A stretch of DNA of 21,506 nucleotides. Source: a virus. Within the stretch, counting starts at the first letter, position 1. Each line of letters starts with the position of its first letter. The notes under the pieces were generated by a model. That model ran no database searches. It was not told the origin of the DNA and saw only the letters and a program-made list of their open reading frames with translations. The stretch lies in IMG/VR virus record IMGVR_UViG_3300046683_000549, positions 1 through 21,506 of that record. One strand, given 5' to 3'. Of this stretch, positions 5,465 to 20,100 are shown piece by piece. Both the position numbers and the translations under genes were made by a program.

Positions 5465-7450
5465 ATGCCCGGCCCGATGCACTCATGGCTCTACGTTCAG
5501 GACACCTCGGGCCTGGCGTACGAGGTCATCAACGGTGCCCGCACCTTCGGCTACCTCGCCAACCCGGCTCTCGCCATCAACGGTCTGTCGGCCTGCCAGT
5601 CGTTCGGGACGTGCGCCACCTACCCGTTCAAGCCGTACCTCGGCCAGACGATCCCCGGCTACGTCACGATCCCCAACGTCAACTCGAACTACCTGTCGAC
5701 CCCAGACGCGGCAGCCCTCGACATCGTCGGCGACCTGACGATCGTCGCCAAGGTGGCCCCTACCTCGTGGGCCGCTGGCGGATTCCAGACGATCGCCGGG
5801 AAGTGGTCGACGGCGTCGAACCTGTCGTATCTGTTCTCGATCAACTCGGCCAGCGGCCTCACGTTCCAGTGGACGACGGGCGGTATCACCCCGCTCCCCC
5901 TGGCCTCCTCCGTCGCCATCCCCGGCATTGTGGCCGGTCAGGCGAAGTGGGTGGCGGTCACGTTCGACGTCGACAACGGCGCGGCGGGGCGTACGGCACG
6001 GTTCTGGTGGTCGAACAACGGGATCAACTGGAACCTCATCGGCACCCCCCAGACGAGTGCTACGGCGACGTCGATCTTCTCCGGTACCAGCCCGCTGTTC
6101 CTGGGGGTCAACACGGCGACGACGGAACGGATGAACGGCAACATCTACGACGTGTCGATCCGCACCGGTTTCGACCCCACCACCTTCGCTCCCGTCGTCA
6201 TCCCTGGAGCGGCAGAGAAGTTCCACTTCTCCGGCTACGAACTGACGAACGCCGCCGCCGCCACGTTCGTCGCGACGTCCGGGCAGACAGTCACCGTCAA
6301 CAAGTCCGGCTCCCCCCAGACCACCATCACCCCGGTACAGGCGTGCGGGTCATGGTCGGCCCAGACATACTCCACCCCCGCCCTCGACCCGGCCCCCTGG
6401 TACAACGTTGCCTACCCGCAGTCGGCGGACGCACTCGGGATGCTCGTCGAGGACTGGACCGGGCTGGACGACGCCCACATCACCCGGCCGACGACGCCGT
6501 GGGGCGGATACGGCGGCGGGGCGTCGCTCGGGTCCATCGCTGCGACCGGGCGCACCATGAAGGTCAACCTGTTCCTGTTCGGCCGCACCGAGGAAGCCGT
6601 CGAGTATCTGTTCCGCTGGCTCGCGGCGACGCTCACCGGGGTCTGCGCGACGTGCGCCACCGAATCGATGCTGGTCCGCCGCTACTGCGGTTCGACCAGC
6701 AACCTGTGGGATGGCGTCGCCGAGATAAGACAGGTCGGCCTCATCGAAGGGTTGAAGTGGGAGGCCGAACCATTCACCGGCGGCTCCTGCACGTTCCGGC
6801 GCGCCTCGTTCACCTTGATGGCCGGCGACCCCTGCATGTACTCGCAGGAGATCACCCCGACGCCGGATGGCTCCGACATCAACGCCAACTTGGTCACCTG
6901 TCTCGGCACCGACTCGCCAACCAACGAGCTTCGAGCGATCTGCCGTCCCCTCTGCACCGAGGTCGCCCAGTCCTGTCGCACGACACGCGCCTTTACCGTG
7001 AGCAGCCTCGGGGTGACCGGGCCGATCGTCACATGGTCGAACAACCAGAACCAGTACAGCTACCCGATGCGTGCCGTCGTGCGCGCCGACCCGGGAACTG
7101 TCGGCATCGCCCCGAACCCGTGCGGACTGCCGATCCTCGGCGAGATCTACGTCCGTGCCCTTCCCCCGTACGCCCAACTTCGATGGGACGTCGTCGGCCG
7201 CACCGTCGAGGTCATCGACTCCACCACCGGAGGATGGGCGCCGGGGTGGGCCTACATCGATGGCAACGACCCGCCTATCGGCCGCTTCTTTGCCGCTGGA
7301 TGCGGCAAGGCGTACGTCATCATGGAACCCGCCACCCTGTGCGCCGACTTCATCTCCGGCACCACCTGGACCCTTGACGGTCTCACCTTCAACCCTCCCG
7401 CCTACCCGTCGGTCTCCCTCGCGGTCGGTGAGCGACTCTCGTGCCCGTAA
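5465..7450 (+). CDS. Distal-tail-like minor tail protein with LamG-type domain, Cys-rich
   Basis: This 661-residue protein starts one base after the tape measure stop, with GGAG at 5456-5459 as ribosome site. Position and layout suggest the distal tail protein that joins the tube to the tip hub. Residues 1-65 look like the start of a tail-ring domain. Residues about 72-255 look like an inserted LamG/concanavalin-A-like jelly roll: a YLSTPDAAALDIVGDLTIVA opening, a central AKWVAVTFDV strand, and a closing strand with NGNIYDVSI. Such insertions usually bind host surface glycans. Residues about 300-661 are beta-rich and unusually Cys-rich: 16 Cys in the whole protein, 14 of them from residue 294 on, which suggests metal binding or disulfides. 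The tail role is well supported by context; the distal-tail assignment is inference. Confidence 0.75.
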   Translation: MPGPMHSWLYVQDTSGLAYEVINGARTFGYLANPALAINGLSACQSFGTCATYPFKPYLGQTIPGYVTIPNVNSNYLSTPDAAALDIVGDLTIVAKVAPTSWAAGGFQTIAGKWSTASNLSYLFSINSASGLTFQWTTGGITPLPLASSVAIPGIVAGQAKWVAVTFDVDNGAAGRTARFWWSNNGINWNLIGTPQTSATATSIFSGTSPLFLGVNTATTERMNGNIYDVSIRTGFDPTTFAPVVIPGAAEKFHFSGYELTNAAAATFVATSGQTVTVNKSGSPQTTITPVQACGSWSAQTYSTPALDPAPWYNVAYPQSADALGMLVEDWTGLDDAHITRPTTPWGGYGGGASLGSIAATGRTMKVNLFLFGRTEEAVEYLFRWLAATLTGVCATCATESMLVRRYCGSTSNLWDGVAEIRQVGLIEGLKWEAEPFTGGSCTFRRASFTLMAGDPCMYSQEITPTPDGSDINANLVTCLGTDSPTNELRAICRPLCTEVAQSCRTTRAFTVSSLGVTGPIVTWSNNQNQYSYPMRAVVRADPGTVGIAPNPCGLPILGEIYVRALPPYAQLRWDVVGRTVEVIDSTTGGWAPGWAYIDGNDPPIGRFFAAGCGKAYVIMEPATLCADFISGTTWTLDGLTFNPPAYPSVSLAVGERLSCP

Positions 7451-7458
7451 GGATCTGA

Positions 7459-9927
7459 ATGCCCGCCCCCTCCCTCCGCGGCCAGTCCCCGTACGTCTCG
7501 GCAACCGGCTCCTCGATCACAATTCCGTTGCCCTCCCGCAACGTCGACGACTGGGTGTTCCTCACTTTGACGGGCATCGATTGGACGAACAGCCTGACGG
7601 CCCTGCCCCCCCTCCCTGCCGGCTACGTCATGTTCGACGGTTCCTTCACGTCTGGCTCCTTCCGCCTCCAGGCATACAAGCGAATCACCAGAGCGGGCGA
7701 ACCAGATCTATTCGTGCGAGGGTCGAACACGATGTACTGGTACGGGGAGGTTGACGTCTTCGGCGGTGTCGACTATCGAGACCCCGGCTACCTCGACATG
7801 CCGGGTGGCGCCGGGAACTACGCGACCCGCACCCGCACGGCCATCACCTTGCCCACCGCGATCGATCTCGTGGCACGGGTGTCGTTCGATGCTCTCGGCA
7901 TCGACAACAGGGTGTCCAGTTGGGCGTCGAACGACATGGGCTTCGGTCTCAACTCGTCGAACCGGCCCTACATCTTCGTCAACAACACCCTCGGCGCCCC
8001 GATCGGCAATGTCGCCGCCAACGCCGACGTTCCGGGGCTGCTCGCCGGCCGGAAGGTATGGCTGTGGGCACACCTGGACTTCCCCACCGGCAACATCAGC
8101 TACTACTACTCGTTCCTCGACATCGAATATTTCAGCTACGCCCGCTTCAAGCAGTTGGGGACGACGGTGGCGGGGACGAACGGGGGCACGACGCCGCGCA
8201 CCACGAACTCGTTCCCCATCTACCTCGGTACGAACCCGTCAGGGACGCCGACCGGGATGAACCTCTACAGCTTCGGCGAGATCGGCAACGACGTCACCAA
8301 CTTCGTCTTCTCGGCCCCGTTGCCAGCCACCGTGACCCTGTTCGGCACCGTCGCACACCGCCGCCCGACCACCGGCAACTCATCCCCTCTGGAGGGGATC
8401 ACGGCCGTTCTCCCCACACTCCCCGTGGACTCTGTGACGACGTCCGTCGACGTCGTCGGCGGAAACAAGCGACTCGTGTTCAGCAAATGGGAGATCGGGG
8501 CCAGCCCCGCCCCAGCCGTTCCGCCCAACCCCGCCCTCGCCCCGTCGCCGGGATGGAAGGGGCTGCCGGAACGACAGACGGCCGTCGCCACCCTCGGCCT
8601 GAAAGAGGCCCTGTATACACAGGAAGCAGATCTGGGCACGGCGACGATCACGGTGAGCACCGCCGGTGCCAGCGTCTACCTCAATCAACCTGGGGCGACC
8701 CTGACCGCTGGCACGTTCGTCCTCCGTCCCCTCCCCGAGCCGGTCCTTCCACCCGCCTCCCCGCAGCCGCCACGCTTGAAGCTGGGCTGCGCCACCGAGT
8801 ACACGGCGTGGTTCACCGACGGTTCCTATGCGACGAGGATCGACTCGGCGAGATGGTCGAATCTCACCTGGGAGCGCGCCATCGACTCGATCTCCACGGC
8901 CTCGGCGACGTTCCCGGACGAATACGGCGGGGTGCGCTGCCTCGCCCGCCTCGGCGGGTTGGAGCCGTGGCGGTTCGGTCTACTCATCGAACGCGACGGG
9001 GTCGAGGTGTGGCGCGGCCCGGTCGTCACGGTGAGACGGATCGCGAATGGCATTCAGGTCAACGCCGCCGACGTCCTCGCCCGCTACCAGAAGCGATTCG
9101 CCATCCGAGACGCCGTCGTCTCTTACACCAACATCGACGCCGGACTCCTGTTCCAGAAGATCATCGACACCCACGCCGCGTCGACGCTTGACCAATGGTC
9201 GCTGCCGGTTCCAACGGTCAACGTCAACGTCAACATCACCCGCCAGTTGAAGCCCCGCGAGTTCAAGTACGCCTGGGACCTCCTGTCGGAACTCATGTCG
9301 TCCTCGATCGACGCCTACGTCATGAACGGCAGGCTGTACGTCTGGCAGCCGGGGGTCGGCTGGCGGTACCGCGACGTGATCGACTGGACCCTGGACGGCC
9401 CCTACAACTCGGACTTCGACTTCGTGTACGGCACCTTCACCGAGGAAGCCTTCAGGACCCATCCGACGTGGACGCTGGACGGGGCGGGACAAGGCAACTT
9501 CGTCGTCGTGCCGGGCACCGACACCGGCGAGTACGGCTTCCGAAGCTACAAGTCGGCGGAAGCGGAGGGTTCACAAGAGATATACGGCCTGCTCGATCTC
9601 ACCGACCCCGACCCAATCCAAGTGCCGGAGGACTCCCCCGCCGACCTCGTCGATCAGGTCCTCGCCGCCCGCGCCTCCGGCCTCCTCTCCCTGCGGGATA
9701 CGCCGCCGTTCACGATCGAAGGCGGCGTCCTGTCGGAGGCCGCTCCGGTCGACGTGGATAACCTTCGCCCCGGCGCACTATGGAAGCTGGACGTCTTCGA
9801 TGACGGGTTCCCTGAACTCCTCACCTCCACCCGGCTCCGCCGCGTGTCGGTGGCCGTGAACCGTACTGCGACCGGGATCAGCGAGGAGATCTCCCCGACA
9901 TTGGAGCCGACGGGGTCGGTGTCATGA
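7459..9927 (+). CDS. Tail hub / tail-tip protein with N-terminal LamG-type domain
   Basis: This 822-residue protein has AAGGA at 7449-7453 placed five bases before the ATG. Three parts can be seen. Residues 1-105 form a beta-sandwich-like segment (for example ITIPLPSRNVDDWVF and the later FRLQAYKRI). Residues about 110-290 look like a concanavalin-A/LamG domain (YLDMPGGAGNYATR, KVWLWAHLDFPTGN, PIYLGTNPSG). Residues about 440-822 resemble the tail-hub or Gp37-like proteins of siphoviruses of Gram-positive hosts, with motifs such as ERDGVEVWRGPVVTV, VNAADVLARYQKR, YVMNGRLYVW and a C-terminal DVDNLRPGALWKLDV. The hub closes the tube and carries receptor-binding parts. A Pro-rich stretch near residues 340-370 links the halves. 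Hub function is inferred from these motifs and from the position after the distal-tail gene. Confidence 0.75.
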   Translation: MPAPSLRGQSPYVSATGSSITIPLPSRNVDDWVFLTLTGIDWTNSLTALPPLPAGYVMFDGSFTSGSFRLQAYKRITRAGEPDLFVRGSNTMYWYGEVDVFGGVDYRDPGYLDMPGGAGNYATRTRTAITLPTAIDLVARVSFDALGIDNRVSSWASNDMGFGLNSSNRPYIFVNNTLGAPIGNVAANADVPGLLAGRKVWLWAHLDFPTGNISYYYSFLDIEYFSYARFKQLGTTVAGTNGGTTPRTTNSFPIYLGTNPSGTPTGMNLYSFGEIGNDVTNFVFSAPLPATVTLFGTVAHRRPTTGNSSPLEGITAVLPTLPVDSVTTSVDVVGGNKRLVFSKWEIGASPAPAVPPNPALAPSPGWKGLPERQTAVATLGLKEALYTQEADLGTATITVSTAGASVYLNQPGATLTAGTFVLRPLPEPVLPPASPQPPRLKLGCATEYTAWFTDGSYATRIDSARWSNLTWERAIDSISTASATFPDEYGGVRCLARLGGLEPWRFGLLIERDGVEVWRGPVVTVRRIANGIQVNAADVLARYQKRFAIRDAVVSYTNIDAGLLFQKIIDTHAASTLDQWSLPVPTVNVNVNITRQLKPREFKYAWDLLSELMSSSIDAYVMNGRLYVWQPGVGWRYRDVIDWTLDGPYNSDFDFVYGTFTEEAFRTHPTWTLDGAGQGNFVVVPGTDTGEYGFRSYKSAEAEGSQEIYGLLDLTDPDPIQVPEDSPADLVDQVLAARASGLLSLRDTPPFTIEGGVLSEAAPVDVDNLRPGALWKLDVFDDGFPELLTSTRLRRVSVAVNRTATGISEEISPTLEPTGSVS

Positions 9928-10421
9928 GCGACCGCGTAGTACGCGAGCAACGCCTCGCACTGGAGCAACGCCTCGCCCACACCGAAGGCAAGCTCCGCGC
10001 AGTCGCGTTGCGTGCCTGGCCGGGCGCGGTCCGCAGTGACGCCTCGTTCACGTCGTACGTGCCCGAGACCCCAAGTCTTCTCACCCCCCTCGTCGCGTTC
10101 AACATTCCGGCAGGACGGTGGATCGCTCTCGGCTCCGTCACATTCATCCCGACACCCCCATACGCGGACTCCCAGTTCCAGATCTTCCTCTCGGTCGTCG
10201 ATGCCGTCACCGGGGCCTCCCCGACGAACCCCCTGTCCGACCTGCCCCCCTGCGACGTCACCTTCGCCGCCTCCGGCGCCTACCCCACCCCTTCTCAGAC
10301 GGGGACGATCATCGGCGATGTGGTGGCCGACGAGGCCGCGACGGTCACGCTGTCCAGCGTGAGCAACTCGGACACCCCCTACACTGCCAGCCTTGCCCGG
10401 TTGCGAATGATGCCAGTCTGA
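9924..10421 (+). CDS. Small minor tail/fibre protein with coiled N terminus
   Basis: The ATG at 9924 overlaps the stop of the hub gene (ATGA), implying translational coupling. The product has 165 residues. Residues 5-30 are charged and helical, with EQRLA twice six residues apart, and probably form a short trimerising coil. From about residue 38 the chain is beta-rich, with VAFNIPAGRWIALGSVTF early and YTASLARLRMMPV at the end, a layout like C1q/TNF-type fibre heads. It lies between the hub and two fibre genes, so a tail-tip accessory or receptor-binding role is likely. I do not recognise a named family. Confidence 0.6.
   Translation: MSDRVVREQRLALEQRLAHTEGKLRAVALRAWPGAVRSDASFTSYVPETPSLLTPLVAFNIPAGRWIALGSVTFIPTPPYADSQFQIFLSVVDAVTGASPTNPLSDLPPCDVTFAASGAYPTPSQTGTIIGDVVADEAATVTLSSVSNSDTPYTASLARLRMMPV
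9945..9976 (+). repeat. 14-base direct repeat in coiled-coil segment
   Basis: The 14-mer GAGCAACGCCTCGC occurs exactly at 9945-9958 and 9963-9976, 18 bases apart. It encodes EQRLA twice in the helical N terminus of the small tail protein. Perfect base identity suggests a recent local duplication. Confidence 0.8.
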
Positions 10422-10439
10422 GATGCAAGACTACTGACC

Positions 10440-11102
10440 ATGCTGTGCTCCGGGAACTTCTGTGGCTGCGGGATCGTCTCGGCGTCCCTCGCGGTCACCG
10501 GGTCCGGCGCCCTCGGCGACCCGTACAAGATCGAGTCGAACGCCTTCGCCGTCGTCACGTCCAGCACCCGTCCCGGGTCACCGTTCGTCTGGCAGCACAT
10601 CTTCGAGACTGACACCGGGTTCGTGCGGGTCTGGGATGGGACGTCGTGGCTGCTGGAGTCATGGACGAAGGCTCCGGTCTGCATCGTCCGCAACGCCGCC
10701 CCGCTCAGCATCCCGCACGCCACGGCGGCAGCCCTCTACACCTTCGACACCGAGGACAAGGATCTGTTCGGCTGGCACGCCCCGGGGGCGTCGAAGGTCA
10801 TCCCGAATATTCCGGGATGGGTCCACGTCTCCTTCTCAGCGTCCTGGCAGACGGCAGCCGACTACACCCGCACGATGGTCGGCATCCAGGTGAACGGCGC
10901 CATCCCCGCCCCCCGCCGCCGTTTCGATCTCGTCGACTCCGGTGGACCCGCCGCCGGGCCGGCCTACAGCGGCAGTGCTGGCTGGGTGCTCGTCAACGGC
11001 ACCACCGACTACATCGAGATGGAGCGGTACCACTCCAACGGCGCCTCGGCGGCCCGCACCCTCGAAGCCATCATGACTGTCGAATGGAAGGCGCCACCAT
11101 GA
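10440..11102 (+). CDS. Tail fibre protein: Cys docking segment plus C1q/TNF-like head
   Basis: This 220-residue protein starts 18 bases after the previous stop with no strong ribosome site. The N terminus begins MLC and then CGC, with Cys at 3, 8 and 10, followed by VTGSGALGDPY. The next gene has the same layout in its first 29 residues, so this looks like a shared attachment module. Residues 45-75 include TDTGFVRVWDGTSWLLES, a pattern seen near fibre heads. Residues about 78-220 read like a C1q/TNF-type jelly roll: AAALYTFDTEDKDLFGWH, then IPNIPGWVHVSFSASW, a VNGTTDYIEMER strand and a final MTVEWKAP. Such heads usually trimerise and bind receptors. Role inferred from sequence pattern and position. 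Confidence 0.68.
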   Translation: MLCSGNFCGCGIVSASLAVTGSGALGDPYKIESNAFAVVTSSTRPGSPFVWQHIFETDTGFVRVWDGTSWLLESWTKAPVCIVRNAAPLSIPHATAAALYTFDTEDKDLFGWHAPGASKVIPNIPGWVHVSFSASWQTAADYTRTMVGIQVNGAIPAPRRRFDLVDSGGPAAGPAYSGSAGWVLVNGTTDYIEMERYHSNGASAARTLEAIMTVEWKAPP

Positions 11103-12151
11103 TCTGCGAACAGTCGGGTTGTGGCTGCGCTCTGACAGTTGCCTCCGGGACAGTCACCGGCTCCGGCACCCCCGCCGACCCGTGGGTCCTCAACGTCGCC
11201 AACTCGCCATCGATCACCCAACTCCAGATCGACGTCGCCAACATCTTCGCCGCCCTTGACGCCCTCCCCGGCACCTACGTCGACGTCGCCGGTGACACGA
11301 TGACCGGCTCCCTGACGATCAACAACGATGGGTCCGCGCTCCGCATGATCCGGCCGGTCAACGACCGTCCGTTCATCGAGTTCTGGGATGGCACCAACAC
11401 GACGATATTCGGCTACATCGTCGGCGGGGCGTTCGGCATGGAGATCCGCAGCAGCGTCGGCGAGGTCAAGATAGAGCCTTTCGCCACCGAAAGGGCGCGC
11501 TTCTTCAGCAACGGCCTACTCGTCGGCAAGACGGCCACCAACATCGGGGTAGCCGGCGTCGAACTCCTGACGACCGGCCAGATACTCACCACGCACGCCA
11601 ACGTCACCTTCATCAACCAGATGAACAAGATCGGCGCGGGCGTCATCAGCGGCGCCCCGTACATCAGCTTCCAGCTTTCCGGTTCACAGATCGGCTCGAT
11701 CACCCGTAACGCGGCCACGTCCGCCATCCTCTACAACACGACGTCCGACGAGCGGATGAAGAACGTCATCGGCGACCTCGACCCGGAACTCTGCGAGTAC
11801 ATCCTCGGCATCGTCACCCCGATGATGTTCTCCTGGAAAGACGACGAAGGCAACACGCCGATCGCCGGCTACATCGCACAGCAGGTCGCCCGGGCCTGGC
11901 CGCAGTCGATCGAGTTGGGCTTCGTCTCCCCCGGCATCGGGGATGTCACGGACCGGACGTTCGACTCCGAAGGCAACGAGACGACACCAGAAGGCAAGTG
12001 GCGGCCGTGGATGATCGACAAGACGGTCATCATCCCAATCCTCCACGCCTCCCTGGTCCGCACCACCACGAAGCTCTCCTACCTGCGCGCCGAGTTCGAC
12101 GAGTTCAAGACCAGCGTCGAGGATCGGCTGGCCTCCCTCGAAGATGCCTGA
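11099..12151 (+). CDS. Tail fibre with C-terminal S74 intramolecular chaperone
   Basis: The start at 11099 overlaps the previous stop (ATGA). The open frame extends further left, but that part lies inside the preceding gene and is not used. The product has 350 residues. The N terminus has Cys at 3, 8 and 10 and VTGSGTPADPW, matching the previous protein without gaps. Residues 61-74 contain VAGDTMTGSLTI, a common fibre-shaft motif. Residues about 215-350 match the S74 chaperone: TSDERMKNVIGDLDP with Ser216 and Lys221 spaced like the catalytic Ser/Lys pair of endosialidase-type chaperones, then IAGYIAQQV and a C-terminal helix (TTKLSYLRAEFDEFKTSVED). In known members this domain drives trimer folding and then cuts itself off. 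The S74 call is strong; the receptor is unknown. Confidence 0.85.
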   Translation: MICEQSGCGCALTVASGTVTGSGTPADPWVLNVANSPSITQLQIDVANIFAALDALPGTYVDVAGDTMTGSLTINNDGSALRMIRPVNDRPFIEFWDGTNTTIFGYIVGGAFGMEIRSSVGEVKIEPFATERARFFSNGLLVGKTATNIGVAGVELLTTGQILTTHANVTFINQMNKIGAGVISGAPYISFQLSGSQIGSITRNAATSAILYNTTSDERMKNVIGDLDPELCEYILGIVTPMMFSWKDDEGNTPIAGYIAQQVARAWPQSIELGFVSPGIGDVTDRTFDSEGNETTPEGKWRPWMIDKTVIIPILHASLVRTTTKLSYLRAEFDEFKTSVEDRLASLEDA

Positions 12152-15627: not shown

Positions 15628-16089
15628 ATGAGCCACTTCCTCACCAACCGCGGCAAGCTGCTTATCGTCCAGGGCAAGTGGGACACCGCTGGCGCAACGG
15701 CCATCAAGATCGGCCTCCTCCAGGGTTCGGCGGTGCCAGCCGCCATCGACACCGCGGGGGAGATCGCCGACATCAACACGAACACCGACCTGTTCGCCCT
15801 GTCCGGCGTCACCGAGGTCACCGGCGGCACATACGCCCGGCTTTCGCTGTCGCGCACCAACGCCACCGAGGACGACGCCAACGACCGGGTGAACGCCGAC
15901 GCCTCCGACGTCGTGTTCAACTCGGGCACGAACGGCCAACAGACGTACGGCGGATGGTGGTACGACGCCACCACCGACACGAACGAGACGACCCGCCTCG
16001 TCTACGGCGTCTTCGCCTTCGCCTCCGCGATCACGTTCAACGGGTCCACCGTGACTGGCACCATTGCCGATCTGTGGCGGGCTTCCTGA
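15628..16089 (+). CDS. Small beta-rich phage structural protein
   Basis: The 153-residue product has AGGA at 15617-15620, seven bases before the ATG. It begins MSHFLTNRGKLLIVQGKW, then KIGLLQGS, and contains DANDRVNADASDVVFNS and a late YGVFAFASAITFNGS. This resembles a recurring family of small structural proteins that I associate with late genes of actinophages, with no enzyme motif. The chain is Thr/Asp/Asn-rich and almost free of Cys, as expected for a beta-sandwich virion protein. It may decorate the capsid or tail. The structural role is inferred. Confidence 0.68.
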   Translation: MSHFLTNRGKLLIVQGKWDTAGATAIKIGLLQGSAVPAAIDTAGEIADINTNTDLFALSGVTEVTGGTYARLSLSRTNATEDDANDRVNADASDVVFNSGTNGQQTYGGWWYDATTDTNETTRLVYGVFAFASAITFNGSTVTGTIADLWRAS

Positions 16090-16090
16090 C

Positions 16091-17413
16091 GTGAGGCGCT
16101 TCCTTGCCGCTGTGGCGGTGTTCGCCGGATTCTCCGCCGTCACCCTCACCGTCGCCGCCCAGTCTGCGCCCGCCCCGTATCCACTCGTCGATCCGTCGAC
16201 GCCGATGGTGCAGGTGCAGACCGGTGAAGGGCTGACGTCTGTCGCGGCGCGGGTGTGTGCCTCGGACAAGACCAACTTCTTCCACGCTCTCCAGCAACTC
16301 AACCCGTGGTACCAGTCCGGGGTGCAGCCGGGGACGGTGCTATGGCGGCCGTCATGCCCCGTGGTCTACTCGCGGCCGTCGTCTACCACGACGACGACGG
16401 GGGTACCGGCGACCACATCGACGACAATCCCAGCCACGACCACGACGATCCGTCCGACGACCACGACGAGCGCGCCGACAACCTCGACGAGTTCTACCGT
16501 CCCGGGCGTCTGTTCGGCCCCCCCAAACACCCCCGGCGGTAGCGACGGCCGGGGCGGCTGCTTCCCGGGAGTCGACAACACCGGGCCGAACGTCCCCGAA
16601 TCGGCGTTGCCGGCCTACACCGGCGACTGCTACATCCGCACGGCGACGGTGATCGACTCGAAGGTGATCCGCTGCGATCTGGAAGTCCACGCCCCGCTGA
16701 CGGTCCGCAACTCGTACCTCTACGGCCAGGTGTTCAACAACAACGACTGGCCCGGATACGTCATCCGCGTCGAGGACACCGTCATCAACGGGGTGCAGCC
16801 GAACGGCTACGCCTGTCACGACTGCGGCATCGGCGGCCCGAACTGGACGGTGCTCCGCACCGAGATCTTCAACACGAACCGTGGCGCCTTCTGTGTCCAG
16901 GAATGCCTGCTACAGGACTCCTACATCCACGGGCAACGGTTGAACCCTGTCCCGTCGAACCTGGAGCACGCCTCCGGCGCGAGAGTCGAGCAGTTCACGA
17001 CGTTCACCCACAACACGCTGGCCTGCGACTTCCAGGGGCCGTTCGTGAACGACGAGATCGGCTGTTCGGCGGACCTGACCGGCTACCCGGACTTCGCTCC
17101 GATCTGGCACAACACGATCACCAACAACCTGTTCATCGCGAACGGTGTCGGCAACGCCTACTGCGCCTACGCCGGGAACGACACCGGCAACCCGCGCACG
17201 AAGCCGTTCGGGAACGATCCGAGGAACGCCACGTACGTCGTGTTCACCGGCAACGTGTTCCAGCGTGGCCCGAACCGTCTGCCGCAGTACGGCACCGGTC
17301 CCGGTGTGTGCGGTGCCTACGGCCCCGTCGTCGCCTTCGATCCGTCCCGCACCGGCAACGTCTGGTCCGGCAACGTCTGGGATACGGGCGGCCTCGTCCC
17401 GTCCGAGAACTAG
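16091..17413 (+). CDS. Exported protein: signal peptide, LysM-like, Thr-rich linker, beta-helix
   Basis: The GTG at 16091 follows the previous stop by one base and begins with a clear signal peptide (RRFLAAVAVFAGFSAVTLTV, likely cut after AQSA near residue 26). The open frame reaches further left, but that start would spoil the signal peptide. The product has 440 residues. Residues about 40-88 resemble LysM (VQTGEGLTSVAARVC, HALQQLNPW, VQPGTVLWRP). Residues 96-140 are a Thr/Ser/Pro linker. Residues about 155-440 show the repeating N-rich strands of a right-handed beta-helix (TVRNSYLYGQVF, VLRTEIFNTNRGAF, HNTITNNLFIANG, FTGNVF), with many Cys that may form disulfides after export. It could be a wall-bound polysaccharide-active or surface-masking protein. 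No catalytic residues can be assigned. A signal peptide is unusual among virion genes. Confidence 0.75.
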   Translation: MRRFLAAVAVFAGFSAVTLTVAAQSAPAPYPLVDPSTPMVQVQTGEGLTSVAARVCASDKTNFFHALQQLNPWYQSGVQPGTVLWRPSCPVVYSRPSSTTTTTGVPATTSTTIPATTTTIRPTTTTSAPTTSTSSTVPGVCSAPPNTPGGSDGRGGCFPGVDNTGPNVPESALPAYTGDCYIRTATVIDSKVIRCDLEVHAPLTVRNSYLYGQVFNNNDWPGYVIRVEDTVINGVQPNGYACHDCGIGGPNWTVLRTEIFNTNRGAFCVQECLLQDSYIHGQRLNPVPSNLEHASGARVEQFTTFTHNTLACDFQGPFVNDEIGCSADLTGYPDFAPIWHNTITNNLFIANGVGNAYCAYAGNDTGNPRTKPFGNDPRNATYVVFTGNVFQRGPNRLPQYGTGPGVCGAYGPVVAFDPSRTGNVWSGNVWDTGGLVPSEN

Positions 17414-18957: not shown

Positions 18958-20100
18958 GTGGCGCATTACGGGCGCGCAGACCCAATCCAATCGATCGCCA
19001 TTCGGGCGGTCGAGGTCGGGCCGATAACTGTCGCGATCGACACGGCGGACCTGTCGCTCACCGGCATCGACCCGACCGCCACGGGGACCGGGACCGCCAC
19101 AGTCGCGATCGACCCGGCGACGGTCACGTTGACCGGCCAGGACATCGCCGCATCCGGGTCCGGGACGTCGACGACGTCGATCGATGTCGCCACCCTCACC
19201 TTGACCGGCGTCGACATCACCGCAGCCGGGTCGGGTACGGCGACAACGACGATCGACCCGGCCACGCTCACGCTGACCGGCGTCGACGTGACCGGTGCGG
19301 CCTCCGGTACCGCCACCGTCACGATCGACGTGGCGACACTGACCCTCACCGGCCAGAACATCACCGCCTCCGGGACGGGGACGGCGACCACCACCATCGA
19401 CGTCGCCACGTTGACGCTGACCGGCATCGACATCTCGGCCGCCCCGACCGGCAGCACCGTCGCCATCGACACAGCCGTCCTCACGCTCACCGGTCAGGAC
19501 ATCACCGCAGCCGGGTCCGGCACCGCGACCGTCGCAATCGACCCGGCCGCGTTGACGCTCACAGGCCAGGACATCACGGCGACAGGTTCCGGCACCGCGA
19601 CGAGAACGATCGACCCGGCCACGTTGACGTTGACCGGGATCGACGTCGTCGCCTCACCCACCGGCACGACTGTTGCCATCGACACGGCGACGCTCACCCT
19701 GACCGGTCGCGACATCACGGCGACGGGGTCTGGCACCGCGACCATCGCGATCGACCCGGCAGTCCTCACTCTGACCGGTCGCGACATCAACGCCTACATC
19801 ACCGGCAGCCTCCTGGCAGCGATCATCGTCTGCGACATCACCGGGCCTGCCCTCAGCCGCAGGGTCCTCGGCCCTGCCATCGACGCGATCACAGTCGATG
19901 GGCCACGCCGCGACACGGACACCGTCACAGGCCCAGCCGTAGCCGTGGTCGTCACTGGTCCCGCCGCCGTCGCCTACATTCTCAGCGGCCTCGGGCGGGT
20001 CGCAGGTCTCCTCACCGGCCCGGCGACCGAAGGCAGAAACACGACCGGCCCCCGGACCGGGAGTAAGGTAATCGGCGGTCCGTCCAACCGGTGTGGCTGA
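18958..20100 (+). CDS. Repeat fibre-like protein with eleven 23-24-residue units
   Basis: The GTG at 18958 has AAGGG seven bases upstream and gives 380 residues. After a 23-residue lead, residues 24-284 are eleven tandem units built on TxxIDxATLTLTGxDITAxGSGTA; each looks like two or three short strands. Such a chain would form an extended beta structure, suiting a fibre or adhesin. Residues 285-380 differ: they have eight GP dipeptides (ITGPAL, LGPAI, VTGPAV, LTGPAT, TTGPRT and others) and a Cys near each end (292 and 379). No signal peptide or anchor is seen. The neighbours are virion-type genes. Fibre function is inference; the repeats are certain. Confidence 0.72.
   Translation: MAHYGRADPIQSIAIRAVEVGPITVAIDTADLSLTGIDPTATGTGTATVAIDPATVTLTGQDIAASGSGTSTTSIDVATLTLTGVDITAAGSGTATTTIDPATLTLTGVDVTGAASGTATVTIDVATLTLTGQNITASGTGTATTTIDVATLTLTGIDISAAPTGSTVAIDTAVLTLTGQDITAAGSGTATVAIDPAALTLTGQDITATGSGTATRTIDPATLTLTGIDVVASPTGTTVAIDTATLTLTGRDITATGSGTATIAIDPAVLTLTGRDINAYITGSLLAAIIVCDITGPALSRRVLGPAIDAITVDGPRRDTDTVTGPAVAVVVTGPAAVAYILSGLGRVAGLLTGPATEGRNTTGPRTGSKVIGGPSNRCG
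19027..19809 (+). repeat. Eleven tandem 69-72-base coding repeats with higher-order triplets
   Basis: Units run 24, 24, 24, 24, 24, 23, 24, 24, 23, 24 and 23 residues. Units 6-8 (19387-19599) and 9-11 (19600-19809) match as triplets. Each triplet starts with a 23-residue unit ending APTGS or SPTGT, then a unit starting TVAIDTA, then one starting with IDPA. Units 1-2 look like the last two members of such a triplet. The array probably grew by duplication of single units and of triplets. Confidence 0.88.

What the first reader, a model, noticed from the sequence alone, without database searches (positions are those of the whole stretch)
10440..11190. Two adjacent fibre genes share an identical-layout Cys N-terminal docking segment
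The proteins at 10440-11102 and 11099-12151 align without gaps over their first 29 residues. Cys are at 3, 8 and 10 in both, CGC at 8-10, VTGSG at 19-23 and DP at 27-28. The rest differs (C1q-like head versus S74 fibre). This suggests a swappable anchor that attaches different heads to the same site, with Cys possibly binding metal or forming disulfides with the Cys-rich distal-tail-like protein upstream.
Basis: partly seen in the sequence, partly recalled or inferred. Interest (0 to 1): 0.72.

Follow-up and report, generated by a model that had tools for sequence, protein, structure and literature searches.

The report
Shared cysteine plug on phage fibres
Two neighbouring tail-fibre genes of an uncultured phage begin with the same short cysteine-rich tag, and this tag turns out to be a widespread start module of tail fibres in phages of Streptomyces-like bacteria, joined to many different heads, so it is probably the plug by which interchangeable fibres are fixed to the tail.

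Summary
The first 29 residues of P0001 (10440-11102) and P0002 (11099-12151) align without gaps, 14 of 29 identical; no shuffle in 200,000 scores as high. The segment is a real, recurrent module. A profile built from 31 non-window copies finds both window proteins (E 2.6e-6 and 7.1e-5). I found 53 capped genes in 39 loci, 12 of them with two or three adjacent capped genes, including cultured Streptomyces and Rhodococcus phages. The invariant columns are M1, C3, C8, C10, G21, G23 and P28.

The segment has two halves. The Cys half is found only at N-termini. The VTGSG..DPY half is a common fibre beta-motif also found internally, so by itself it is not an anchor. Heads differ: tail collar, polysaccharide deacetylase, C1q-like, glycine-rich, S74. 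Capped records carry a phrog_838 distal-tail-like protein in 28 of 36 cases, against 2 of 50 controls; it is usually Cys-rich.

Best reading: a shared trimeric attachment plug with Cys-based locking. The closest solved analogue is the Milano tailspike arm. The Cys chemistry is untested. New variant of a known kind.

The parts
10440..11102 (+). P0001, 220 aa: Cys cap (residues 1-33), SSTRPxxPF..ETDT..WDGTSW linker (about 36-72), C1q-like head (about 75-217)
10440..10538 (+). Cys cap of P0001: Cys3 (10446-10448), Cys8 (10461-10463), Cys10 (10467-10469), VTGSG (10494-10508), DP (10518-10523)
   Evidence: translation; profile E 7.1e-5; invariant columns
11099..12151 (+). P0002, 350 aa: Cys cap, short predicted-helical stretch, GDTMTGSLTI fibre motif, S74 chaperone domain, C-terminal predicted coiled coil
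11099..11191 (+). Cys cap of P0002: Cys3 (11105-11107), Cys8 (11120-11122), Cys10 (11126-11128), VTGSG (11153-11167), DP (11177-11182)
   Evidence: translation; profile E 2.6e-6
11099..11102 (+). ATGA overlap of P0001 stop and P0002 start: the two genes are on one message and probably translationally coupled
11744..11905 (+). Peptidase_S74 (intramolecular chaperone of endosialidase) of P0002, residues 216-269
   Evidence: PF13884, 1.8e-6, above curated cut-off
5465..7450 (+). Distal-tail-like protein (phrog_838 family), 661 aa, 16 Cys, with LamG-like insertion; proposed socket or neighbour of the cap. Cys 613, 553, 408 and 497 lie in columns where Cys is more frequent in capped phages
7459..9927 (+). 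Tal/baseplate-hub-like minor tail protein (phrog_837), 2 Cys; alternative socket
9924..10421 (+). Small protein (165 aa) between hub and capped genes, no family match

Best explanation
The first 30-odd residues are a shared N-terminal attachment module (Cys cap) of trimeric tail fibres. Different heads are joined to the same cap, and one phage can carry two or three capped fibres encoded side by side. The cap is expected to dock at the tail tip, on the phrog_838 distal-tail or the hub protein. The beta half (VTGxG..PY) starts the trimeric beta shaft. The Cys half locks the plug: one Cys to the baseplate partner and the CxC pair holding the three chains together, by disulfides or a shared metal. 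Shown here: recurrence, N-terminal restriction of the Cys half, head diversity, tandem genes, and association with the phrog_838 protein and with its Cys content. Inferred: trimer, docking, site, and Cys chemistry.
For: Profile of 31 other copies recognises both window proteins. 53 capped ORFs in 39 loci, 12 with at least two adjacent. A scan for the Cys half alone (MA[RS]CxC...CxC) gave 51 ORFs of 80 aa or more, 41 of which continue into VTGxG..PY within 60 residues, and 7 further loci with at least two caps. Matches covering the Cys half start within about 16 residues of a start codon, while internal matches cover only the beta half. Heads: tail collar, glycine-rich, collagen-like, polysaccharide deacetylase plus CBM, C1q-like, S74, beta-helix spike behind a variant cap. 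Within-genome caps are 38-76% identical while most head pairs score at or only a little above shuffle level. Cap records carry the phrog_838 protein in 28 of 36 cases, against 2 of 50 with only the internal motif. Dit Cys counts: median 26 in cap+ against about 5.5 in cap- phages (p 5e-6, not corrected for relatedness). In cultured phages the capped genes sit in the tail-fibre block upstream of the endolysin. Solved analogue: Milano tailspike arm, Cys15 bonded to baseplate and sheath, Cys24/Cys26 inter-chain (PMC10811340; CxC confirmed in its sequence).
Against: No structure of any capped protein (PDB profile search empty), and the models are too poor to judge the cap (pLDDT 33 and 52). No evidence that either protein is in virions. 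Some cap+ phages have Cys-poor Dit proteins. Many phages are related, so counts are not independent. In two tandem pairs (L189, L312) the heads are homologous too, i.e. plain gene duplication.
Confidence: 0.62

Rival explanations
1. The cap is a trimer clamp rather than a docking plug: the Cys cluster, by metal or disulfides, registers and seals the N-terminal end of the beta shaft, and attachment to the tail is by something else.
For: CxC next to a beta motif is suited to tie three chains, as Cys24/Cys26 do in Milano; three Cys and the beta motif are the invariant columns.
Against: Does not explain the strong tie to one distal-tail family (28/36 against 2/50) or the Cys-rich form of that protein.
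Confidence: 0.2
2. A metal site (Zn or Fe-S) rather than disulfides: the Cys cluster binds a metal within or between chains, made in the reducing cytoplasm before lysis.
For: Most copies have four Cys as CxC-x(3-9)-CxC or CC-x(n)-CxC, a metal-ligand-like layout; other phage tail tips are reported to hold an iron-sulfur cluster (papers found, not read in detail).
Against: Window copies and the L168 pair lack one of the four Cys; the variable one is the first.
Confidence: 0.3
3. Ordinary paralogy: gene duplications with later head replacement; the N-terminus is retained by descent without a special common binding site.
For: L189 and L312 pairs have homologous heads.
Against: Specific columns (Cys, G, P) are invariant across very diverged phages while the heads are unrelated and the DNA has diverged at all codon positions; selection on the segment is required. 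The reading is compatible with, rather than opposed to, docking.
Confidence: 0.12
4. Chance or low-complexity similarity between two glycine/serine-rich N-termini.
For: VTGSG-like motifs are common.
Against: 0 of 200,000 shuffles; independent profile recognition; independent recovery from the Cys half alone.
Confidence: 0.01

Closest known systems
Tailspike gp124 and short fibre gp31 of Agrobacterium phage Milano (PMC10811340)
   Same: N-terminal arm with one lone Cys followed by CxC; lone Cys disulfide-bonded to baseplate and sheath, CxC tying the trimer; gp124 also holds a TGTGAAGDP beta module
   Different: Myophage; Cys at 15, 24 and 26; no VTGxG..PY directly after the CxC; not shown to be homologous to the cap; the two Milano fibres do not share one cap
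Conserved N-terminal anchors of receptor-binding proteins with swappable heads (Klebsiella phages, PMC6872550; Ackermannviridae branched tailspikes, PMC11414711)
   Same: Constant N-terminus, varied C-terminal heads, several per phage
   Different: As recalled, those anchors are larger folded domains without a Cys cluster (papers found, text not read); here about 33 residues with invariant Cys
phrog_863 'tail fiber assembly' family (Woodruffvirus proteins)
   Same: Its full-length profile covers the cap of Xkcd426 gp31
   Different: The family is defined by the whole protein and does not describe the cap as a module; it does not match the window proteins
Central fibre proteins of mycobacteriophages Douge, Claus, Corndog, Mysterious (PMC13033339, PMC13252515)
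   Same: Trimeric fibres attached by a short N-terminal arm to the baseplate hub in actinobacteriophages
   Different: Attachment described by H-bonds and hydrophobic contacts; word searches found no zinc, metal or disulfide in either paper and a single mention of cysteine, in the Douge paper only

Membership tests
Cys-cap N-terminal module (defined here) | Three Cys in C-x(n)-CxC within the first residues after the start codon | tested here: met
Cys-cap N-terminal module (defined here) | VTGxG..xP(Y/F/W) motif about 8-9 residues after CxC | tested here: met
   window spacing 8, usual spacing 9
Cys-cap N-terminal module (defined here) | Profile match with window sequences excluded from the profile | tested here: met
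   E 2.6e-6 and 7.1e-5
Cys-cap N-terminal module (defined here) | Fourth Cys (first of the first pair) and MA[RK] start (common but not invariant features) | tested here: not met
   absent in both window copies; variable elsewhere
Peptidase_S74 intramolecular chaperone (P0002) | Pfam PF13884 above gathering score near the C-terminus | tested here: met
   28.5 bits, cut-off 22
C1q/TNF-like head (P0001) | Family profile match | tested here: not met
   no Pfam match
C1q/TNF-like head (P0001) | Jelly-roll fold like C1q | tested here: inconclusive
   low-confidence model; best Foldseek match C1qA, E 0.014
Milano-type disulfide-anchored tail fibre | Lone Cys plus CxC in the N-terminal arm | tested here: met
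Milano-type disulfide-anchored tail fibre | Disulfide bonds to the baseplate in the virion | not testable with these tools
   needs cryo-EM or mass spectrometry
phrog_838 distal-tail-like protein (window 5465-7450) | Profile match | tested here: met
   4.1e-20

The most novel reading that the evidence does not exclude
Actinobacteriophages of this tail type share a universal, Cys-locked plug-and-socket system: a roughly 33-residue cap is swapped among unrelated heads (lectin-like, enzymatic, chaperone-made fibres), several of which are mounted on equivalent sites of one Cys-rich distal-tail ring in a single virion and locked covalently or by metal.
Probability: 0.25. Interest if true: 0.66.

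Novelty: new variant of a known kind. Interest (0 to 1): 0.5.

Why it matters
Constant anchors with interchangeable heads are how phages diversify what they bind. Here the anchor is very short, recognisable from sequence, and marks fibre genes otherwise annotated as hypothetical in Streptomyces and Rhodococcus phages and in metagenomic contigs. It gives a direct handle for annotation and a testable idea about how siphophage fibres are locked to the tail.

Tried and rejected
Close-relative scans of viral contigs with whole P0001 and P0002 found nothing, and tblastn found only S74 or head-region matches. The strict CGC-x8-VTG DNA pattern mostly hit an unrelated recurring 49-aa reading frame; one real cap (L079) opened the family. 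Short tblastn queries of the segment gave weak hits or none. In bacterial genomes the pattern gave only chance matches, but that pattern excludes the VTGNGS class, and a capped gene probably lies on a Streptomyces plasmid, so absence from prophages is not claimed. Structure prediction was uninformative for the cap. A first Dit Cys count used wrong strands for several loci and was discarded. Within-genome caps are only slightly more alike than caps between genomes (0.535 against 0.494, permutation p 0.015), so coevolution with the phage's own socket is at most weakly supported. Chance similarity rejected.

Full report
Observation. Their first 29 residues align without gaps with 14 identities; the ungapped score of 72 is far above the best of 200,000 shuffles, 43. 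The genes overlap by ATGA. DNA identity of the segment is 60%, even over codon positions, so the similarity is old. Downstream of the segment the proteins are unrelated. P0002 ends in a Peptidase_S74 chaperone domain. The P0001 head is probably C1q-like, on moderate evidence only.

Setting. The window is a 21.5-kb viral fragment with the end of a tape-measure-like protein, a distal-tail-like protein (phrog_838) with a LamG-like insertion, a hub-like protein (phrog_837), a small protein, the two capped genes, one further gene, and an endolysin-like gene with peptidoglycan-binding domains. The same order (distal-tail, hub, small protein, fibres, endolysin) holds in Streptomyces phages TP1604 and Xkcd426.

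The two halves. A DNA pattern for VTG[ST]GTxx[DN]P[YF]x[VI] retrieved 92 stretches from viral contigs. Most copies are internal in fibre proteins and lack Cys; a subset sits at the N-terminus behind a Cys cluster. Patterns that include the CxC gave more. An alignment of 31 non-window copies reads M-A-(R/K)-C-x-C-x(3-9)-C-x-C-x-(I/V/L)-xx-G-xx-V-x-VTGxG(T/S)-xx-(D/N)-P-(Y/F/W)-x-(V/I). Its profile finds P0002 at E 2.6e-6 and P0001 at 7.1e-5 although neither was used to build it. Matches that include the Cys half begin within about 16 residues of a start codon; internal matches cover only the beta half. In a 25-sequence alignment the invariant columns are M1, C3, C8, C10, G21, G23 and P28 of P0002. 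The window copies lack the first of the usual four Cys and have 8 instead of 9 residues between CxC and VTG.

Independent recovery. To avoid selecting on the beta half I scanned only for the Cys half. Of 51 in-frame ORFs of 80 aa or more, 41 continue into VTGxG..PY within 60 residues.

Tandem genes and varied heads. The first collection gives 53 capped ORFs in 39 loci, 12 with at least two adjacent capped genes, one type with three (L118/L119, near-identical contigs). The second gives 39 loci, 7 with two. The sets share a few phages. Heads include tail collar, glycine-rich, collagen-like, polysaccharide deacetylase with a carbohydrate-binding domain, C1q-like and S74; TurkishDelight has a beta-helix spike behind a variant cap lacking the full motif. 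In most tandem pairs caps are 38-62% identical while heads are at or only a little above shuffle level; in L189 and L312 heads are homologous, showing duplication as one origin.

Partner. 28 of 36 capped records hold a phrog_838 protein; the eight that do not are fragments, all shorter than 30 kb. Of 50 records with only the internal motif 2 do. Cys per distal-tail protein is 9-33 (median 26) in cap+ and 1-15 (median about 5.5) in cap- phages, p 5e-6 without correction for relatedness. TurkishDelight and PIS 136 were counted as cap+; PIS 136 has a cap elsewhere. Partial matches in five cap+ records are Cys-poor (2-5 Cys), so the link is strong but not strict. The window protein has 16 Cys; Cys613 lies in a column that is Cys in 22 of 22 cap+ and 4 of 10 cap- proteins, Cys553 in 21 of 22 and 5 of 10, Cys497 in 16 of 22 and 1 of 10.

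Mechanism. The best-supported reading is an N-terminal attachment plug of trimeric fibres with interchangeable heads. For the Cys, the best solved precedent is phage Milano: tailspike Cys15 is bonded to the sheath and baseplate wedge proteins, Cys24 and Cys26 to each other between chains (PMC10811340), and its sequence shows the lone Cys plus CxC. A metal site is the main alternative for the chemistry. Neither was testable here: no solved relative of the cap, poor models, no complex modelling.

Novelty. Constant anchors with swapped heads are a known kind, and Cys-locked fibres are known from Milano. I found no paper describing this cap, within an open-licence library only. The short, sequence-recognisable Cys cap shared by tandem fibres of actinobacteriophages is therefore rated a new variant of a known kind.

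Noticed in passing
window 5465-7450 (and possibly 7459-9927): The distal-tail-like protein carries a LamG/concanavalin-like insertion (phrog_5313 match, PF13385 below cut-off); the hub-like protein seems to have a similar stretch by eye.
   Followed up: no
window 18958-20100: ORF made of about ten tandem repeats of 24 residues (72-bp period at 19084-19793), function unknown.
   Followed up: no
window 16064-17413: Protein with a Thr-rich linker and 15 Cys (3.3%), well above most other genes of the window.
   Followed up: no
L311:7260-7991, L312:5255-5986, L310:7263-7985, L346:9840-10463, L308:7415-7990, L355:10826-11446: A second N-terminal type with a single early Cys (such as MARVCVDSTYFNVDDTGQLT) sits directly before, or in place of, the capped gene in several actinobacteriophages; possibly another shared attachment segment.
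   Followed up: no
NZ_CP134608.1 65976-67229: A protein 57% identical to a capped fibre lies on a 103-kb Streptomyces plasmid, probably a phage-plasmid.
   Followed up: no
L003-L078 (many viral contigs): A recurring 49-codon open frame GNPCGCECAERRSGVTGTGTQGKTAPQCGG was repeatedly hit by the first pattern; unrelated to the cap.
   Followed up: no
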